In this document: positions 11,028-39,726 of the stretch, one piece after another
Numbering within the stretch: the stretch's first letter is position 1
How the letters are laid out: each line of letters opens with the position of its first letter
Origin: Acidobacteriota bacterium
GTDB taxonomy: Bacteria; Acidobacteriota; Terriglobia; Terriglobales; Acidobacteriaceae
Length of the DNA stretch: 39,726 bases
Assembly: GCA_021810625.1 (NCBI GenBank)
Contig: JAJZIJ010000022.1
Span: 1 to 39,726, forward strand
Reading direction: 5' to 3'
Translations under genes and position numbers: made by a program
The notes under the pieces: generated by a model
What the model was told of the DNA's origin: nothing
The model's database searches: none
The model's input: only the letters and a program-made list of their open reading frames with translations

Positions 11028-11147
11028 ACAAGTCCTTCTTGAGAAGTCGCATTCCCTCAGGGGCTGAAGCCCGCGTTGACTTGACTGCGTTTACGGCGCG
11101 GCTGAAGCCGCGCCCCTTCAAAACGCAAACCTGCTCAGAGATTCTTT
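11028..11147 (+). repeat. Dispersed REP-like repeat, copy 1
   Basis: About 120 bases present again, inverted, at 39271-39390. The 77-base core from CCCTCAGGGGCTGAAGCCC to ACGCAAAC differs at six positions between copies. It holds two hairpins, GGGGCTGAAGCCC and GGCGCGGCTGAAGCCGCGCC. Copy 1 fills the gap between the TIM-barrel gene, whose stop it touches, and the small dehydratase subunit. It has no coding potential and looks like a non-autonomous, REP/BIME-like element. Confidence 0.85.
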
Positions 11148-28569: not shown

Positions 28570-31619
<3,050 letters not shown>

Positions 31620-31623
<4 letters not shown>

Positions 31624-32996
31624 AAGGAACCATGCGCGTACAGATTTTTTTCCTCGCCGCGATTTTTCTTGTCGCGCTGACCAGCTCGTTGATCGCGCAA
31701 GAGCCTGCGCTCCCACCGGGAACTTCCTCGGTCGATAGCACCCATGCAACAACCAGCAGGCCAAGCCTGACCGCGCAGGCCGAAGACGATCTTGCACGCG
31801 GCAACATACAGCAGGCGATTCCACTACTCAACAGCGCTCTCGCGTTTGAACCCAACAATGCGCGCGCGCTCTACGACCGTGGCTACGCAGAACAAAGCAC
31901 GCAACACGACGATGCCGCCATTGTGGATTTTCAAAAGGCCATCGCCGCCGATCCCAAACAATATGAATCTCGCGCTGCGCTGGCCAGCCTCTACGCCGGC
32001 CAGGGAAAATTTAACGAGGCGCGAGTACAGTTGGAAATCGCCGCAACCTTGACACCCGCAGATGCGCATCCCGCGCAGACCAAGGCGTATGCGCTTCGCC
32101 TGCTGGCGAACGTGGACAACCAACTCCACGACCCTGCCGCTGCCGCCAACGCCTTGGTCGCCGCATTAAAGTTGACTCCAGAACAGCCGGAGGACACGCT
32201 GCTGGCCGCGCAGTTGGCCGAGGAGCAAGGCTATCCGCAGGATGCAGCAACAGAGTATCGCAAGGCCATCGCCGCGATCCCAAACAACAGCCCTCTTTTT
32301 GTCGATGCCCTCTCCGGCCTCGCCCGCGCACTGAGCGCAGAGGGAAAGTTCAGCGACGCGGAACCGCTGTTGCGACAAGCATTGGCGCAGCAGCCACAGA
32401 ATCCGGCGCTCATGGCGCAATTGGCAACGGTGCTGGCAGGCGAAGGAAAAAATTCCGATGCCATCGCGCAACTGGCGACACTGCATCAGGCGCATCCCAA
32501 CCAGCCTGCGGTCACGCGCATGTTGGCCGATCTGTACACACAGGCGGGCGAGGCAGCAAAGGCCAATCCACTCTACGCGCAACTCCTGGCGCAGGGCCAT
32601 CCAGATGCAGACCTGTTGACGGCGCGTGGAGAGAATCTGATTCGCCAGCAACGGTACGCAGAGGCGGTCGCCGTGCTGCAACGGGCCGTCGCGCTGCAAC
32701 CGAACCTGCCCGATACGTGGAGCGATCTGGCCTTTGCCGCTTCGCGGAACAACCAATACGCGCTCGCGCTGCAAGCACTCGATCATCGAGCCAAGTACAA
32801 GCCGGAGGTGCCAGCCACGCTGTTTCTGCGCGCCACGGCACTCGATCATCTGCATCAGACCAGGCAGGCGATTGCCTATTACAAACAGTTCATTCAGGCA
32901 GCGCAGAATACAGCAGCGCAGGATCCATCGGCGCACGATACATTTTCCGATGAAGTCTGGCAGGCGCAACATCGACTCATCGCGCTGGAGAAATAA
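31620..32996 (+). CDS. Exported tetratricopeptide-repeat protein
   Basis: A 458-residue protein. A signal peptide covers residues 1-27 (MRVQIFFLAAIFLVALTSSL, then IAQE). From about residue 50 to the end it is made of alanine-rich helical TPR units (for example NIQQAIPLLNSALAFEPNNA, ARALYDRGYAEQ, YAEAVAVLQRAVALQPNLPD). TPR folds bind other proteins; a scaffold role in the periplasm is the most that can be said. Its ATG overlaps the uvrA stop (ATGA), so translation is coupled; a second ATG four codons later follows AAAGGA closely and could also serve. The SprT-like gene begins four bases after its stop. Confidence 0.83.
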
Positions 32997-32999
32997 CAG

Positions 33000-33749
33000 G
33001 TGTCCCTTTCGCTGCCATCGCAACTGGCAATTTTTTCTGACGACGTGTTGGCTCACGCGCCACATCCGCGCAGCCTGACGGAAATCTTCGCCGCCGAATA
33101 TCGCGCGCTGCGCCCTCGCGCTCCCATGCCCGCCTTTGAAATTCGCTTCTATCGCTTCACCAGCATCAACACCACGATCCGGCTGCGCGAGGGCAAGGCG
33201 CTGGTTCGCCTGTCCGATGTGCTTGAAGGCGCGCCGGAGAGCGTGCTGGCCGCCATCGCGCACATCCTGCTGGCCAAGCTCTACCGCAAGCCCATCGAGC
33301 CAGCACACGCGCATCGCTATCGGCGGCATCTGAGCAGCGCCGCCATCACCGAGCGCGCCGAGCAGCTCCGCCGCAACCGTGGAAGAAAACGCATCAGCAC
33401 CGCGCAGGGCCATTATTATGATCTGGAGAAAATCTTCGATGACCTGAATCTGCGCTTCTTTCAAGGACTGCTCGGTCGTCCCGTACTAACGTGGAGCGCG
33501 CAGCGCGCGCGCCGACTGCTGGGCCATTACGATGCTGCGCACAACACCATCGTTGTCAGCCGCGTTTTTGACACCGCGCACACGCCACGCCTGGCCATTG
33601 AATATCTGGTGTATCACGAGATGCTGCACCTCAAGCATCCGGTACGCGTGCGCGGCGGACGCCGCTGCGTCCACTCGCGGGAGTTTCAGCAGGACGAAAA
33701 ACTCTTTCCAGATTTGGACAAGGTCAAGGAATTTCTGAAGACGTTATGA
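33000..33749 (+). CDS. SprT-like zinc metallopeptidase
   Basis: A 249-residue protein with no signal peptide. The C-terminal third has a zincin site: His206-Glu-Met-Leu-His210 in YLVYHEMLHLKHP, with a further His (RRCVHSREF) as a plausible third ligand, in the layout of SprT/YgjP-like domains. The preceding part has FDDLNLRFFQGLLGRPVLTW, the usual lead-in of SprT-like folds (region of NxxFF). A GTG start is supported by GGAG nine bases upstream. It lies four bases after the TPR gene. Its stop overlaps the convergent lgt gene by six bases. The substrate is unknown. Confidence 0.8.
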   Translation: MSLSLPSQLAIFSDDVLAHAPHPRSLTEIFAAEYRALRPRAPMPAFEIRFYRFTSINTTIRLREGKALVRLSDVLEGAPESVLAAIAHILLAKLYRKPIEPAHAHRYRRHLSSAAITERAEQLRRNRGRKRISTAQGHYYDLEKIFDDLNLRFFQGLLGRPVLTWSAQRARRLLGHYDAAHNTIVVSRVFDTAHTPRLAIEYLVYHEMLHLKHPVRVRGGRRCVHSREFQQDEKLFPDLDKVKEFLKTL

Positions 33750-34529
33750 GTGCGCCTCGTGCATCACAGCCGTCGCCGTTGCCACTCGCGCCTGCGCGCG
33801 CCGCCGCGACCAGAGCATCAGCAGCAAGCCCGCAATCATTGACCCGATGCTGGCGATCTGCGCGTTGCTCATGCCCATGTAGATTTTTGGATTGATGCGG
33901 ATAAACTCCACCAGAAATCGGCCCAGACCGCTCCATAGCAGATACTCCCCGGTCAGCCAGCCGACCGGCTTGCTGGTCTTGCCACGCTGCCACAAATACG
34001 CCGCCAGCACGATGGAGAAAATAAATTCATAAATTGGCGTTGGATGCACCGGAACCACGGTCGGCACCAGCCCATGCGGAAAGCTCATGCCCCACGGCAT
34101 CGATGTCGGAATGCCATAATCGCCATCGCCGGAGATCAGGCAACCGATGCGGCCCACGCCATAGCCCACCGCCGTCGCTGGAGCGGCCAAATCCAACATT
34201 CCCAGCCCACCAACCTTGGCCACGCGCCCCTGCCACAACAGCACCAGTACGCCAAGCACCAGCCCGCCAAACCAGGCGAACCCGGCGCGATCCAACAGCA
34301 TGTGCGCGGGTTGGGCCATCAGCTCTCGCGGAGCCTCCAGCACATGCCACAGCTTCGCGCCGACAACTCCGGCCACCGTGACCATCGCGGCCACGTTGAT
34401 GGCATCCGCCGCCACGCCATTGCGCTCAAAATTCTTGTGCAGCACCCAGCAGGCGCTTACCGCCGCCAGCCAAAGCAGGATGCCAAAGGTGCCAATCTCG
34501 TAGTGTCCAATATGAATAAAGGGATACAT
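33744..34529 (-). CDS. lgt: Prolipoprotein diacylglyceryl transferase
   Basis: A 261-residue polytopic inner-membrane enzyme that moves diacylglycerol from phosphatidylglycerol to the lipobox Cys. It has about seven hydrophobic segments, the N-terminal HIGHYEIGTFGILLW, AGFAWFGGL (the conserved H/W-G-G part) and the Lgt signature region VGYGVGRIGCLISGDGDYG with the essential Arg127. TPIYEF and GLGRFLVEFIR follow. The signature lacks the GNFxN of E. coli Lgt and has GCLISGDGDYG, a variant also seen outside Proteobacteria. The ATG at 34529 has GAGAG five bases upstream. Together with lspA it makes this window's lipoprotein-processing set. Confidence 0.9.
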   Translation of the reverse strand: MYPFIHIGHYEIGTFGILLWLAAVSACWVLHKNFERNGVAADAINVAAMVTVAGVVGAKLWHVLEAPRELMAQPAHMLLDRAGFAWFGGLVLGVLVLLWQGRVAKVGGLGMLDLAAPATAVGYGVGRIGCLISGDGDYGIPTSMPWGMSFPHGLVPTVVPVHPTPIYEFIFSIVLAAYLWQRGKTSKPVGWLTGEYLLWSGLGRFLVEFIRINPKIYMGMSNAQIASIGSMIAGLLLMLWSRRRAQARVATATAVMHEAHS

Positions 34530-34682
34530 GGTGTCTCTCATCTCCAGTATATGGGACGTGTGGGTTGCCTGCGATGCCACTCCGTTGGCTGGATAGATTT
34601 TATCGTTGGAAGCTCTTATTGTGAGCAATCTCTAAAAATTACACGCTAAAATAACGTGTTGCAGTATAAACGAGGGACTCAA

Positions 34683-35957
34683 GTGCGAATCGACCACCTT
34701 AAGCTAACAAACTTCACCGGATTTAAATCCTGTGAGTTCACATTTCATCCGAATTTCAATCTTCTTGTAGGCGATAACGCCACGGGAAAGACCTCTGTCC
34801 TTGATGCACTTTCGATCGCGCTGGATAGCTGGGTTCTTGGCATCAAGGGGGATGAAAAAGGAGGTGGCATTGATTCTGACCAGGTTCGCATTGTTCCGTA
34901 CCCGCATCAAGATAGTTTTTCTTTTGAAAAGCAGTTCCCGTCCCGAATCGAAGTCTGCGGACTTGTGGGGGAACAGGAATTTACCTGGGCAAGAGAGTTG
35001 GCCCGCGAAGGTGGCAGAACTTCTACCAAGGAAGCCAAAAATGTCACGAATGCAGCCGGTGAAGCGGCACAGAAAGTACGAGACAATCAGGATATTACGC
35101 TTCCCATAATCAGTAGCTACGGCGTCGAAAGATTGTGGTTTCAATCCACGCCCAGAAAATCCAAAAAAGAGGGAGGGGCGCGGAGCCTCTCACTATCGAG
35201 ACTCGATGGATATCGCAATTGTAATTTCTTCGAGATTCAGGAAACTGAACTCCTTGATTGGATTCGAGCACAGGTATCCGTCGGACATCAGCGCAAAAAA
35301 GAAACATTAGCATTCGGGGCAATGAAGAACGCAATTATCGATTGTGTAGAGGGAGCTACTGACCTTTACTACGACGAACGCTATAGAGATGTTGTAGTTG
35401 TCATGGGACAACAGAACGAGCAGTTGTTTAGAAACCTGAGCGCAGGACAACGCATCATGCTGACCCTGGTTGGAGAATTGGTAAAGCGGGCCACAACACT
35501 CAATCCACAATTGGGCGACGAGGTGTTGAGGAAAACTCCCGGAGTTGTCCTCATTGACGAACTCGATCTTCATCTTCATCCAACATGGCAACGCCGTGTA
35601 ATTCACGACCTCAGGAGAACGTTTCCATCGATCCAGTTCATTGCTACGACACACTCACCCCAATTGATAGGCGAAGCTAAACCCGAAGAGATTCGGGTAA
35701 TAAGTGGCGGCGCGGTGACGATACCTTCGCATTCCTTTGGCATGGACTCAAATCGCATCCTTGAAGAGGTGATGGGCGCAAAGCCCCGGAACGAGGACAC
35801 GGAAATACTACTATCAAATTTGGCAAAATCGATTGACGAAGAAAACTTGGATCAGGCTCGGAATCAATTGCAGGAAGTGGAGAATACGCTGGGGCAAGAT
35901 TCTCCAGAGGTTACTGGAGCAAATACGTTGATCCATCTTCTGGATTCCACCCGATGA
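34683..35957 (+). CDS. ptuA: Septu-like PtuA ATPase (AAA/SMC-type)
   Basis: A 424-residue ABC/SMC-like ATPase. It opens with RIDHLKLTNFTGFKSCEFTF, as OLD/RecF-type ATPases do. It has Walker A GDNATGKTS (30-38), the ABC signature NLSAGQR (251-257), Walker B VVLIDELDLHLHP with Asp292-Glu293, and an H-loop ATTHSP with His324. This arrangement is that of the PtuA component of Septu anti-phage systems and of retron-associated ATPases. The GTG at 34683 has GAGGG six bases upstream and starts at the conserved first strand. Its stop overlaps the HNH gene start (ATGA). Base composition is visibly lower in GC than the flanking lgt and hppA, a sign of transfer. No reverse transcriptase is nearby, so it is a plain Septu-type pair. 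Confidence 0.83.
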   Translation: MRIDHLKLTNFTGFKSCEFTFHPNFNLLVGDNATGKTSVLDALSIALDSWVLGIKGDEKGGGIDSDQVRIVPYPHQDSFSFEKQFPSRIEVCGLVGEQEFTWARELAREGGRTSTKEAKNVTNAAGEAAQKVRDNQDITLPIISSYGVERLWFQSTPRKSKKEGGARSLSLSRLDGYRNCNFFEIQETELLDWIRAQVSVGHQRKKETLAFGAMKNAIIDCVEGATDLYYDERYRDVVVVMGQQNEQLFRNLSAGQRIMLTLVGELVKRATTLNPQLGDEVLRKTPGVVLIDELDLHLHPTWQRRVIHDLRRTFPSIQFIATTHSPQLIGEAKPEEIRVISGGAVTIPSHSFGMDSNRILEEVMGAKPRNEDTEILLSNLAKSIDEENLDQARNQLQEVENTLGQDSPEVTGANTLIHLLDSTR

Positions 35958-36628
35958 GAAAAATCGTTAAAGGGAAAGAGCCAACCAGCCTTACGGAGCA
36001 TCGTGCCACGCTCCACACGAATTACGACAACTACCCAGGCAAAGAAACTTTAAGAGAATTTCTGATCAAAGAGCAACGCGGAATTTGTTGCTATTGCCTT
36101 TCGCGAATACCTACAAAATTAGGAAAAATGAAAATCGAGCACTGGCACAGCCAAGCAAATTTCCCTATCGAACAGCTTGATTACTCAAACATGTTGGGGG
36201 CCTGCATGGGGAATGAAGGTCAGCCCGGATCGGATCAGCACTGCGACACATACAAAGGCGAGAAGAATCTCACATTGAATCCTGCAAATCCTCTGCATAG
36301 TATCGAGGATCGAATTCATTTCCTATCCGACGGCAAAATTTCCTCCCCTGATGCAACTATTGATGCAGAACTGAACGCTGTACTCAACCTCAACGTTGCA
36401 CATCTAAAAAATAACCGCAAAGCCGTACTTGATTCGTTCAAGAAATTTCTAGGAAAACGGAAACTTCTGTCTCAATCCCAATGGGGGAATTTACTGAGGG
36501 AATGGAACGGAGAATCATCCACTGGCGACCTTCGGCCCTTTTGTCAGGTTATTGTTTATTGGATACGAAAACGTCTCGCAGGCTATGGGTCGAGCGTTTC
36601 TTCGTCGCCAAACGTTCCTCAATCGTAG
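35954..36628 (+). CDS. ptuB: Septu-like PtuB HNH endonuclease
   Basis: A 224-residue HNH nuclease of the group found in Septu and in retron Ec78-type systems (TIGR02646-like). The N-terminus MRKIVKGKEPTSL matches that family's conserved start. Zinc and catalytic elements are CCYC (45-48), the ββα-metal His63 in IEHWHSQ, Asn79 in LDYSNMLGAC, and His96-Cys97-Asp98 in HCDTYKG. The ATPase is thought to form a complex with the nuclease and release or activate it on infection, degrading DNA. Its ATG overlaps the ptuA stop by four bases. GC content is low, like ptuA. Confidence 0.84.
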   Translation: MRKIVKGKEPTSLTEHRATLHTNYDNYPGKETLREFLIKEQRGICCYCLSRIPTKLGKMKIEHWHSQANFPIEQLDYSNMLGACMGNEGQPGSDQHCDTYKGEKNLTLNPANPLHSIEDRIHFLSDGKISSPDATIDAELNAVLNLNVAHLKNNRKAVLDSFKKFLGKRKLLSQSQWGNLLREWNGESSTGDLRPFCQVIVYWIRKRLAGYGSSVSSSPNVPQS

Positions 36629-36922
36629 CTACATTCTGGCACCGAGAGGAACCAGCGGCTACATCTGCCAGCGAAGCAGGCACGCGCCCACGGTGAAGCC
36701 TACGCCGACCGAGCCAGCAGCACGCGATCTCCGTTCTTGAGGCGATGCTCCTCCCACCCCGTCTGCATTGCCCTTGTTTTTGCGCCGCGCCCTGGCAGCG
36801 CCGTTCCAGATATGCTGGCTTTACCGGGTCGCCAATTCTTTTGCAGCGGCGCGTACACAACAGGCATGGATTGATTCATACTAGATAGCAGCATCTTGTT
36901 TCCCCATTTTCTGGAGGCAGTC
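36629..36922. other. Gap between ptuB and hppA with a doubtful minus-strand ORF
   Basis: About 294 bases without a confident gene. A minus-strand frame from ATG at 36879 to a stop at 36700 would code 59 residues (MNQSMPVVYAPLQKNW..., with WEEHRLKNGDRVLLARSA at the end). It has no clear ribosome site and no recognised family. It could be a remnant of DNA that lay here before the Septu pair arrived. No terminator was seen after ptuB. Confidence 0.3.
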
Positions 36923-39190
36923 TTGGAAGCTTTCTTTTTGAGTGCGGCGATGTTCCTGTGGCAACCCTTCACTTGTTCCGCATCCACGCAGGATCAAAAA
37001 TATCTTTGGATTGCGCTCGGTGTCGCTGTCCTGGCCTTGCTGGTCGCGCTTCTGTTTGCGCGCTCCGTCCTTGCATCGGATACCGGGACTCCGGAGATGC
37101 AGGCCATCTCCAATGCCATCCGCGAGGGCGCAGAGGCATTCATGCGCCGCCAATACAGCACCATCGGCGTACTGGCTCTGGTGATCGCCGCCATTCTGTA
37201 TGTCAGCTACCACCTGTATCCGCGCACAGCCCCGTATGCAGGCATGACGGTGGTCAGCTTTTTAATTGGCGCCATCTGCTCCGCCATTGCCGGATATACC
37301 GGCATGTATGTTTCCATCCGCGCCAACATTCGCACCGCCAGCGCGGCGCGCACCAGCCTGAATCGCGCCCTGCAACTCGCGCTGCGTGGCGGAGCTGTGA
37401 CCGGACTCGTCGTCGTCGCTCTGTCTTTGATTGGCATCGGTCTTCTGTTTTTCGTTTTTGGTGGTCTCACCCACCCGCGGGAAGTTCCCTATCGACTGGT
37501 TGGCTTTGGCTTTGGCGCGTCTCTGGTGGCGCTGTTTGCCCAACTGGGTGGAGGCATCTACACCAAAGCCGCTGATGTTGGCGCGGATTTGGTCGGCAAG
37601 GTCGAAGCTGGCATTCCAGAGGATGATCCGCGCAACCCTGCCGTCATTGCCGATCTGGTGGGCGACAACGTGGGCGACTGCGCTGGCCGTGGCGCTGACC
37701 TCTTTGAATCCACCGCTGCGGAGAATGTCGGCGCGATGATTCTGGGCGCGGCGCTCTATCCCGTCTTCGGGATCAAGGGTATTCTGTTCCCTCTGATCGT
37801 CCACGCCATCAACCTGATTTCCAGCGTGGTTGGCGTCAGCGTCGTGCGCTGCGGCGAAAAAGAAGACCCCATGCACGCGCTGGATCGCGGCTACTACGTC
37901 ACCACGCTGCTGGCGATGGCGGGTTTTGCCGCAGCCGTCTACTTTATGCTTGATGCCCGCTGGTGGCTCTTTGCCAGCGGCGTGGCCGGCATCATTACCT
38001 CGTTCCTGTTTGTCCGCATTACGGAGTACTACACCGAATGCCGCTATCGCCCAGTTCAATCCATTGCGCGGGCATCCCTGACAGGGCCAGCGACCAACAT
38101 CATCAGCGGCTTGGCCGTTGGCATGGAAACGCCGGCCATGCCCGCTGTTGTCATCAGCGTAGCCCTGTTGTTGAGCTATTACTTCGGCGTACACGGCTTG
38201 GCCGATGTGCATGGCATCTCCAGTTATGCCAAAGGAATTTACGGCACGGCGATTGCCACGATGGGCATGCTCTCCTCCGCCGCCTACATTCTGGCAATGG
38301 ACACCTTTGGCCCCATCACGGACAACGCAGGTGGCATTGTCGAAATGTCCAACCAGCCGGAGCATATCCACCAGAGAACGGACCAATTGGATGCCGCAGG
38401 CAACACCACGAAAGCGCTGACCAAAGGCTATGCCATCGGCTCGGCGGCGCTGGCAGCCTTCCTGCTCTTCTCGGCCTACATGGAAGAAATTCGCGGCATC
38501 GTTGCCGATAAAGTCGCAGCAGCAGGAGGCGTGATGCCAAGCGACTGGCACTTCACCAACGTGAATCTGGCCAGCGTTCCGGTTTTTGTTGGCGGACTGC
38601 TGGGCGCGATGCTGGTCTTTCTCTTTTCCTCAATGGCCATTCATGCCGTGGGACGCACCGCGCAGTATGTGATTGAGGATGTACACGCGCAGTTCAAAGA
38701 AAATCCCGGCATCATGCTGGGCACCTCCAAGCCGGACTACGGACGCTGCGTCTCGATTGTGACCGCTGCCGCGCTACGCGAAATGGTCTTGCCGGGATTG
38801 CTGGTTGTCGGTATGCCATTGGCAGTGGGCCTCATCTTCCGCAATTTTGGAGATACCTTCCACGTCTCCTCCATCGTCAACATGCCCACCATTCACGGCA
38901 TTCCGATCGACCTGAGCGGCCCGGAGTCCGTGGCAGCCCTGCTGATGGTCGGCACCATCGCGGGCATTCTGATGGCCATGCTGATGAACAATGGCGGCGG
39001 CGCGTGGGACAACGCCAAAAAGCTGATTGAGACGGGCGAGTATGGCGGCAAGCGCTCCGAAGCGCACAAGGCAGCCGTGGTGGGCGACACCGTCGGCGAT
39101 CCTTTCAAGGACACCGCCGGGCCTTCCCTGCATGTGCTCATCAAATTGCTGGCGACCATCACGTTGGTTCTGGCACCGCTGTTCTTATAG
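36923..39190 (+). CDS. hppA: Membrane-bound H+-translocating pyrophosphatase, K+-independent type
   Basis: A 755-residue integral membrane pump that couples pyrophosphate hydrolysis to proton export, with about 16 helices. The substrate site is DVGADLVGKVEAGIPEDDPR with the adjoining VGDNVGDCAGRGADLFES, and near the end GDTVGDPFKDTAGPS. Lys497 in GNTTKALTKG is the lysine that marks K+-independent H+-pumping enzymes; K+-dependent ones have Ala here. The start is uncertain: TTG at 36923 has GGAGG five bases upstream and is preferred; ATG at 36950 is the alternative. It saves energy by using the PPi made in biosynthesis, for example by the IleRS reaction. Confidence 0.93.
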   Translation: MEAFFLSAAMFLWQPFTCSASTQDQKYLWIALGVAVLALLVALLFARSVLASDTGTPEMQAISNAIREGAEAFMRRQYSTIGVLALVIAAILYVSYHLYPRTAPYAGMTVVSFLIGAICSAIAGYTGMYVSIRANIRTASAARTSLNRALQLALRGGAVTGLVVVALSLIGIGLLFFVFGGLTHPREVPYRLVGFGFGASLVALFAQLGGGIYTKAADVGADLVGKVEAGIPEDDPRNPAVIADLVGDNVGDCAGRGADLFESTAAENVGAMILGAALYPVFGIKGILFPLIVHAINLISSVVGVSVVRCGEKEDPMHALDRGYYVTTLLAMAGFAAAVYFMLDARWWLFASGVAGIITSFLFVRITEYYTECRYRPVQSIARASLTGPATNIISGLAVGMETPAMPAVVISVALLLSYYFGVHGLADVHGISSYAKGIYGTAIATMGMLSSAAYILAMDTFGPITDNAGGIVEMSNQPEHIHQRTDQLDAAGNTTKALTKGYAIGSAALAAFLLFSAYMEEIRGIVADKVAAAGGVMPSDWHFTNVNLASVPVFVGGLLGAMLVFLFSSMAIHAVGRTAQYVIEDVHAQFKENPGIMLGTSKPDYGRCVSIVTAAALREMVLPGLLVVGMPLAVGLIFRNFGDTFHVSSIVNMPTIHGIPIDLSGPESVAALLMVGTIAGILMAMLMNNGGGAWDNAKKLIETGEYGGKRSEAHKAAVVGDTVGDPFKDTAGPSLHVLIKLLATITLVLAPLFL

Positions 39191-39270
39191 CTGTATGAGG
39201 ATTCTTCAACCTGGAGCATTTTTAATTTAGAGAAGCCCTGATCCAGTTCGACCACTGTCCATCAGGAGCC

Positions 39271-39390
39271 AAAGAATCTCTGAATAAGTCTGCGTTTTGA
39301 AGGGGCGCGGCTTTAGCCGCGCCGCAATCGCAGCCAAATCAACGCGGGCTTCAGCCCCTGAGGGAATGTGGCCTCGCAACAAGGACTTGT
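39271..39390 (-). repeat. Dispersed REP-like repeat, copy 2 (inverted)
   Basis: Inverted copy of 11028-11147. Both hairpin parts (GGCGCGGCTTTAGCCGCGCC and GGGCTTCAGCCC) are kept, and the flanking AAAGAATCTCTG and AAGGACTTGT also match. It lies in the gap after hppA, and the left end of an insertion sequence begins six bases past it. Confidence 0.85.
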
Positions 39391-39395
39391 TTAGG

Positions 39396-39726
39396 TGTGA
39401 AGTCTCAATAGGTTGTCCATTCGAGCCAAACCAGAGAAGCTGATTGTGATGAGCAATCCAGATTCAAGGAAAGGAACGAATGGACTATCACCAGAATGCA
39501 CGACTGACGATTCACAGTCGAGAGCAATTAGCCAGGAAAGTTCTTGCGGAAGGATGCACGCTGAAGCTGGCCGCGGCCAGCTTCAGCGTGAGCGCGAAGA
39601 CCGCCGCCAAGTGGGTGCGCCGCTATCGCGCTTCGGGGGCAGGCGGGCTGCGCGACCACAGTTCGCGTCCGCATCGGCTGCATCGACCTACCTCCGCTGC
39701 CCAGATCGAGCGCGTGGAAACGCTGC
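39396..39726 (+). mobile_element. IS481-type insertion sequence, left end (cut by window edge)
   Basis: TGTGAAGTCTCAATAGG at 39396 begins with the TGT typical of IS481/IS3-like terminal repeats and lies 84 bases before a transposase start. The right end, the other terminal repeat and any target-site duplication are outside the window, so the exact boundary is inferred. Confidence 0.55.
39480..39726 (+). CDS. IS481-family transposase, N-terminal part
   Basis: The first 82 residues of a transposase, running off the window. MDYHQNARLTIHSREQLARK is the usual start of this family. A helix-turn-helix (LAAASFSVSAKTAAKWVRRY) follows, then GLRDHSSRPHRL, the conserved link to the DDE integrase core that should lie beyond the edge. 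AAGGA lies before the ATG. The reading frame is intact as far as visible, so the element may be active. Confidence 0.85.
   Translation, partial: MDYHQNARLTIHSREQLARKVLAEGCTLKLAAASFSVSAKTAAKWVRRYRASGAGGLRDHSSRPHRLHRPTSAAQIERVETL

What the first reader, a model, noticed from the sequence alone, without database searches (positions are those of the whole stretch)
34683..36628. Septu-type ptuAB pair as a lone defence insert between lgt and hppA
Overlapping genes for an ABC-type ATPase and a TIGR02646-like HNH nuclease, with lower GC than their neighbours, no reverse transcriptase or other defence genes nearby, and an unexplained 294-base gap downstream. It points to horizontal gain into a housekeeping region.
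Basis: partly seen in the sequence, partly recalled or inferred. Interest (0 to 1): 0.55.

Follow-up and report, generated by a model that had tools for sequence, protein, structure and literature searches.

The report
Imported two-gene phage-defence pair (Septu)
A bacterium carries an imported two-gene anti-phage system between two housekeeping genes, and comparing it with relatives suggests that its cutting enzyme is passed around together with the tail of its partner protein, like a plug-in cartridge.

Summary
In detail: ptuA (34683-35957) and ptuB (35954-36628) overlap by 4 bases and are a clear Septu type I pair. Horizontal gain is supported. The one same-genus genome in the set, 92% identical on both sides, lacks the pair; 2 of the other 60 relatives match PtuB, one with a fragment; the pair is the GC minimum of the window. 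The 'unexplained' gap is in good part a decayed copy of the 3' end of the genome's own fabH. As a locus this is an ordinary new Septu. Less ordinary is its ancestry: PtuA residues 1-240 group with lone pairs of the same phylum, one of which (a broken gene) nests inside the window's clade, while the PtuA tail and PtuB group with another set that includes pairs inside type I restriction-modification operons. Across 47 pairs PtuB distances follow the PtuA tail (rho 0.88), not residues 1-320 (0.17). In the solved PtuA entries listed, the tail is aligned only in those titled as complexes. The signal is absent among 73 more divergent pairs.

The parts
34683..35957 (+). ptuA, RecF/SMC-type ABC ATPase of Septu type I, 424 aa
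34770..34793 (+). Walker A GDNATGKT (PtuA residues 30-37; G30, N32, G35, K36, T37 invariant in 24 rows)
35544..35567 (+). Walker B VVLIDELD (PtuA residues 288-295; D292, E293 invariant in 24 rows)
35733..35954 (+). PtuA C-terminal helical tail, about residues 351-424 (helices 356-362, 371-385, 389-403, 408-423); the part that is inherited with PtuB
35954..36628 (+). ptuB, HNH nuclease with CCYC...MKIEHW core, 224 aa
36086..36256 (+). HNH core of PtuB, residues 45-101; C45, C46, C48, H63, N79, C84, C97 invariant in 26 rows
36642..36772 (-). decayed copy of the 3' end of fabH, about 89% identical to the genome's own fabH (contig C22)
36759..36765 (.). CCGTCTG, present in fabH and in the sister's hppA upstream DNA: likely right junction (inference)
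34579..34641 (.). left junction zone: 92% identity to the sister ends at 34578, weak resemblance goes on to about 34641
33744..34628 (-). lgt, left flank, shared with the sister
36896..39190 (+). hppA, right flank, shared with the sister

Best explanation
A complete, probably working Septu type I anti-phage system, gained by the window's lineage at the lgt-hppA junction as one fragment of about 2.1 kb that also carried a fabH 3' end. Inferred action, from studied E. coli relatives: PtuA oligomers hold PtuB through the PtuA tail; infection upsets this state; the HNH nuclease then cuts nucleic acid (a tRNA in one E. coli Septu, phage DNA reported for another) and the phage fails. Shown here: family membership, intact motifs, empty sister site, mixed ancestry. 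Inferred: the trigger, the substrate, activity in this host, the way in. The pair descends from an older exchange in which one kind of PtuA head was combined with a PtuA tail plus PtuB from another Septu lineage.
For: Families and motifs. Fold: PtuA model (mean pLDDT 85.7) best matches 8eea, E. coli PtuAB, Z 40.6; PtuB model (93.7) matches PtuB chains of 9e8z, 9u9y, 9nnb and 8eea. Empty site. Right edge in a fabH fragment. Patchy distribution. Mixed ancestry: the head tree puts L057 inside the window clade (99/94), the PtuB and tail trees put it far away; 'window clade + L057' is rejected on PtuB (lnL 132 worse, p 7e-101) and on the tail (60 worse, p 3e-5); 'window clade + 12 other lone KIEHW pairs' is rejected on the head (p 0.004). 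Need for ATPase and HNH residues and tRNA-Tyr cutting in an E. coli Septu: passages of PMC13096335.
Against: No phage data. One same-genus genome only, so loss in the sister is not fully excluded. The left junction is blurred. L057 is a broken PtuA read in two pieces from one draft genome; without it the conflict rests on L054, L055, L056 and L249. The clade tests were set up after identities had been seen, on rows that I chose. Head data reject 'window clade without L057' only at p 0.0275. Among the 12 rows with related heads, heads follow PtuB too (rho 0.69 and 0.79 for residues 1-120 and 121-240, tail 0.91). The tail signal is absent in 73 other, more divergent pairs. Long branches meet in the PtuB and tail trees.
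Confidence: 0.85

Rival explanations
1. The pair is ancestral at this site and the sister lost it by a deletion; no gain in the window lineage.
For: Only one same-genus genome in the set, draft assemblies, blurred left edge.
Against: The local alignment of the sister starts at 36754, so it lacks the fabH-like stretch 36642-36753; the joint lies on a 7-base identity between fabH and the sister's own upstream DNA, as expected for an insertion and not needed for a deletion. Composition and patchiness favour gain.
Confidence: 0.15
2. It is the effector part of a type I-A retron whose reverse transcriptase and non-coding RNA have been lost or lie elsewhere.
For: NCBIfam's best names are retron Ec78 effectors (NF041760, NF041761; PtuB 103 bits). 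Some retron PtuB are of the same KIEH type.
Against: No RT match in the window; Rfam's only match is a tRNA; PtuA scores 234 bits against a cut-off of 500 and has 424 aa, not 542-552 as in most solved retron PtuA; the three retron heads form their own branch. No RT match in 7 of 7 closest loci.
Confidence: 0.04
3. The head/tail conflict is an artefact of unequal rates, a short tail alignment or misalignment, and ptuAB evolved as one unit.
For: The tail has 87 columns and long branches are flagged. No rise of the tail correlation among 73 divergent pairs.
Against: 300 random 87-column draws from residues 1-320 reach at most 0.32 against 0.88 for the tail; bootstrap over loci of the difference 0.46 to 0.90. 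Raw identities show it: L057 51-69% in blocks of the first 240 residues against 29% in residues 353-424 and 33% in PtuB; L058/L060 18-42% in the first 240 residues against 47%/44% in PtuB.
Confidence: 0.12

Closest known systems
Septu type I (ptuAB, no RT), E. coli PtuAB 8eea/8ee4
   Same: Same two genes; PtuA 28-32% identical in structure alignments; fold Z 40.6.
   Different: PtuA of 424 against 465 aa; KIEHW-type PtuB; lone insert between lgt and hppA; substrate unknown.
Septu pairs of the window clade: L069, L070, L073, L076, L078, L087, L106 (Acidobacteriota by record title)
   Same: PtuA 54-66% and PtuB 48-64% identical; no RM or RT match in the locus.
   Different: The L076 PtuB frame has one internal stop; positions in their genomes were not compared.
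ptuAB inside type I restriction-modification operons (hsdM-hsdS-ptuA-ptuB-hsdR), e.g. L060, L058
   Same: PtuB 44% and 47% identical to the window's; PtuA tail 36% and 35%.
   Different: First 240 residues of PtuA only 18-42% alike by blocks and on a separate branch.
Type I-A retrons (Ec78/Eco7, Ec83), 9nnb, 9e8z
   Same: Homologous PtuA and PtuB effectors.
   Different: RT present there; PtuA about 550 aa with another head.

Membership tests
Septu type I | PtuA-type ATPase with Walker A, signature and Walker B | tested here: met
   PADLOC PtuA1 7.7e-121; motif residues invariant in 24 rows
Septu type I | PtuB-type HNH nuclease encoded directly downstream | tested here: met
   PADLOC PtuB1 1.1e-74, 4-base overlap, PtuB fold
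Septu type I | No reverse transcriptase in the operon | tested here: met
   (phmmer with one retron RT)
Septu type I | Anti-phage activity that needs both active sites | not testable with these tools
   no wet-lab data
Septu type I | PtuA hexamer with two PtuB | not testable with these tools
   only single chains could be predicted
Retron type I-A (Septu type II) | RT plus msr-msd next to ptuAB | tested here: not met
   no RT match; msr-msd tested only through Rfam
Retron type I-A (Septu type II) | NCBIfam NF041760 equivalog cut-off (500 bits) | tested here: not met
   234.1 bits
ptuAB embedded in a type I RM operon | hsdM, hsdS upstream and hsdR downstream | tested here: not met
   lgt and hppA are the neighbours; no hsd match in the window

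The most novel reading that the evidence does not exclude
PtuB and the PtuA tail form one exchangeable cartridge. Exchange in the very conserved stretch before the tail (about residues 285-350) joins this cartridge to different PtuA heads, and the head, not the nuclease, goes with the setting: alone, beside a retron RT, or inside a type I restriction-modification operon. The head would be the sensor or partner-coupling part, the cartridge the effector with its docking tail.
Probability: 0.5. Interest if true: 0.55.

Novelty: new member of a known kind. Interest (0 to 1): 0.4.

Why it matters
The locus itself adds a Septu pair whose gain can be placed in its lineage. The wider comparison gives a rule that can be tested at the bench: tail and PtuB should be interchangeable as a unit between lone, retron-linked and RM-linked systems, while PtuB alone should not. 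It would separate what the ATPase head does (choice of trigger or partner) from what the nuclease does.

Tried and rejected
Transposition as the way in: the repeat search of 34400-37100 gave one 20-base direct repeat (80%) and one palindrome, neither at both edges, and no transposase frame was recognised next to the pair. Retron remnant: no RT match, no Rfam hit but a tRNA. A real gene in the gap: the 95-aa minus-strand ORF (36700-36987) is fabH remnant plus hppA upstream DNA. Regulatory sites: promoter-like 1 found against 2.7 expected, terminator-like 4 against 2.8. A mosaic made in the window's own lineage: rejected, because seven relatives have the same combination, so the exchange is older. 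A general rule for all Septu: not borne out by 73 divergent pairs. Viral carriage: the single-protein PtuA scan confirmed nothing; alignment scans kept 10 and 80 loci; best PtuB 50% (L149, PtuA not covered), top-ranked PtuA 34% over 384 residues (L159). Papers: searches listed nothing, by title and start of abstract, on co-inheritance of the PtuA tail with PtuB or on ptuAB inside hsd operons; in six papers I saw passages only. Two main structure papers (PMC12318543, PMC12673091) are not held and may describe the tail contact.

Full report
WHAT IS THERE. Two genes on the plus strand, ptuA 34683-35957 and ptuB 35954-36628, overlap by ATGA. ptuA encodes a 424-residue ABC ATPase with Walker A GDNATGKT, signature LSAGQR, Walker B VVLIDELD and the H-loop histidine (motif names recalled); ptuB a 224-residue HNH nuclease with CCYC and KIEHW. 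PADLOC gives PtuA1 E 7.7e-121 and PtuB1 E 1.1e-74. NCBIfam TIGR02646 passes its cut-off narrowly (53.6 against 52.15 bits), the retron-named equivalogs do not. No Pfam model matches PtuB at E<=0.01. The closest solved sequence is PtuA 8ee4, E 2.5e-50. The predicted PtuA (mean pLDDT 85.7) matches the E. coli PtuAB complex 8eea at Z 40.6; the predicted PtuB (93.7) matches PtuB chains of retrons and of 8eea.

THE SITE. The window is one whole contig of a 2.45-Mb draft genome. I take its phylum to be Acidobacteriota: contigs of its unnamed relatives have the same lengths as named acidobacterial records (33,355, 28,132, 9,018 and 189,087 bases); this is inference. The only same-genus genome in the set, G001 (locus L035), is 92.2% identical to window 30001-34578 and again to 36754-39269, and has 66 bases where the window has 2,175. 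Weak resemblance on the left goes on to about 34641. The pair has the lowest GC of the window (2-kb minimum 0.469 at 34601; median 0.566); in 7 of 7 closest relatives ptuAB is also poorer in GC than the rest of the locus, so low GC is partly a trait of the genes. PtuB is matched in 3 of 61 genomes of the relatives set, its own included, one of the three by a fragment without PtuA; PtuA at E<=1e-20 in 11 of 396 genomes of the phylum, its own included.

THE GAP. Bases 36642-36772 are about 89% identical to the 3' end of the genome's own fabH on contig C22, minus strand. The sister's alignment begins only at 36754; the stretch CCACCCCGTCTG (36754-36765) is common to window and sister, and its last seven bases, CCGTCTG, are in fabH too. 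The simplest reading is one insertion of ptuAB plus a fabH end, closed at this short identity, from a donor in which ptuAB lay tail to tail with fabH. That is inference. FabH-like sequence was not found in 21 other ptuAB loci searched, at E<=1e-3, so no such donor was seen. The sister's fabH is cut by a contig end and could not be compared.

THE MIXED ANCESTRY. Seven, all Acidobacteriota by title, match both proteins well: PtuA 54-66%, PtuB 48-64% (L069, L070, L073, L076, L078, L087, L106). L071, L072, L074, L075, L077 and L113 share PtuB (48-60%) and the PtuA tail (51-57%) but only 29-32% in residues 1-240. L057's PtuA is broken (a stop and a change of frame), so it was used in two pieces.

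TREES. Forty-eight rows that I chose (window; 7 window clade; 12 lone with the same PtuB type; 17 RM-linked; 3 retron; 8 others) gave separate trees for PtuA residues 1-240, PtuA tail and PtuB. The head tree places L057 inside the window clade (99/94) and L055 next to it (100/97). The PtuB and tail trees place L057, L055 and L054 far away; L056 and L249 sit there on a very long branch. AU tests: on PtuB, 'window clade + L057' lnL 132 worse, p 7e-101; 'window clade + L054, L055, L056, L057, L249' 76 worse, p 2e-5; '12 lone pairs as one clade', as in the head tree, p 0.034. On the tail, 60 worse, p 3e-5, and 31 worse, p 4e-4. On the head, 'L054, L055, L056, L057, L249 as one clade' p 0.003, 'window clade + 12 lone KIEHW pairs' p 0.004, 'window clade without L057' p 0.0275. 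The groups were named after identities had been seen. Long branches were flagged in all three trees, and joins between them in the PtuB and tail trees.

THE TAIL GOES WITH PtuB. Over 47 pairs, 1,081 comparisons, the Spearman correlation of PtuA distance with PtuB distance is 0.13-0.31 in 60-residue windows that end by residue 320, 0.39 and 0.65 in the two that straddle it (281-340, 301-360), and 0.78-0.88 from residue 321 on. Tail 0.879; 300 random draws of 87 columns from residues 1-320 have mean 0.20, maximum 0.32; bootstrap over loci of the difference 0.46-0.90. Within the window type and its RM relatives, head 0.35 and tail 0.64; RM only, 0.48 and 0.70. Among the 12 rows with related heads the contrast is weak: 0.69 and 0.79 for residues 1-120 and 121-240, 0.91 for the tail. 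On a wider set, 180 pairs, 168 full length, 141 after removal of near-copies, all pairs give 0.25-0.59 up to residue 330 and about 0.7 beyond; the 68 KIEH-type pairs 0.25-0.44 and up to 0.73; the 73 others 0.23-0.50 and 0.41-0.44, that is no rise. So the rule is shown for this part of the family only.

STRUCTURAL SUPPORT. The tail is four helices, 356-423, after the ATPase core in the model. Of the 21 PtuA entries listed (best chain of each), the 4 whose titles name PtuA alone or a complex without the HNH nuclease (8ee4, 8sux, 9e91, 9n6c) align only to model residue 348-373; the other 17, titled as complexes, align to 424. In 8eea two PtuA chains have 445 and 456 residues and two others 372 and 375. 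I infer that the tail becomes ordered where PtuB is bound. I did not see coordinates or the structure papers.

SETTING FOLLOWS THE HEAD. Of the 80 loci, 47 have hsdS or hsdR within 200 bases of ptuAB; 2 more (L097, L109), not caught as pairs by the script, also have hsd genes; 31 have neither hsdS, hsdR nor RT that near (L082 has an hsdM 775 bases away, and some of the 31 are cut short by the contig end). Pfam confirms HsdM, HsdS and HsdR in L060 and L068. Labelled lone, RM or RT, the 48 rows need 2 changes on the head tree, the least possible, and 4 on both the tail and PtuB trees. K. vulgare plasmid L068 is telling: RM setting and RM-type head, but a PtuB of the other type.

MECHANISM. Passages of PMC13096335 report that an RT-free E. 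coli Septu needs Walker A/B and HNH residues, acts like abortive infection and cuts tRNA-Tyr in the variable loop; passages of PMC11555353 say that another E. coli Septu was reported to target phage DNA; passages of PMC12948488 give the 6:2 PtuA:PtuB complex and the release of PtuAB in the Ec83 retron. For the window's pair I infer the same: PtuA holds PtuB by the tail, infection frees or activates it. Which substrate it cuts is open.

KNOWN OR NEW. By PADLOC's scheme (passages of PMC8565338) this is Septu type I, RT-free; a new member of a known kind. In the held library I did not find the cartridge pattern or RM operons with ptuAB (searches, listings only); the key structure papers are not held, so this is no claim that they are unpublished.

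Noticed in passing
window 39271-39390 (second copy 11028-11147, minus): A dispersed repeat of about 120 bases: 41 matches in the own genome and 27 in the sister at E<=1e-8, a lower bound because only 40 candidates per genome were scored; 2 of 200 shuffles fold at least as well.
   Followed up: partly
window 39480-39725: N-terminal part of an IS481-type transposase that runs off the contig end.
   Followed up: no
L060, L058, L068 and many of L081-L148: ptuAB next to type I restriction-modification genes, often between hsdS and hsdR, in several phyla and on a conjugative plasmid; 49 of the 80 loci of the scan.
   Followed up: partly
L057:5744-7014, L063:8244-8554, L076:1298-1915: Decaying Septu in relatives: a broken ptuA beside a ptuB, a ptuB fragment without ptuA, and a ptuB frame with one internal stop.
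   Followed up: partly
G000:C17:21640-22626 and G001:C191:16567-17550: A second FabH-like frame, 38% and 37% identical to FabH, listed with one TAG inside in both genomes of the genus.
   Followed up: no
L150-L152 and L153-L155: RM-linked and RT-linked ptuAB on contigs of the viral collection.
   Followed up: no
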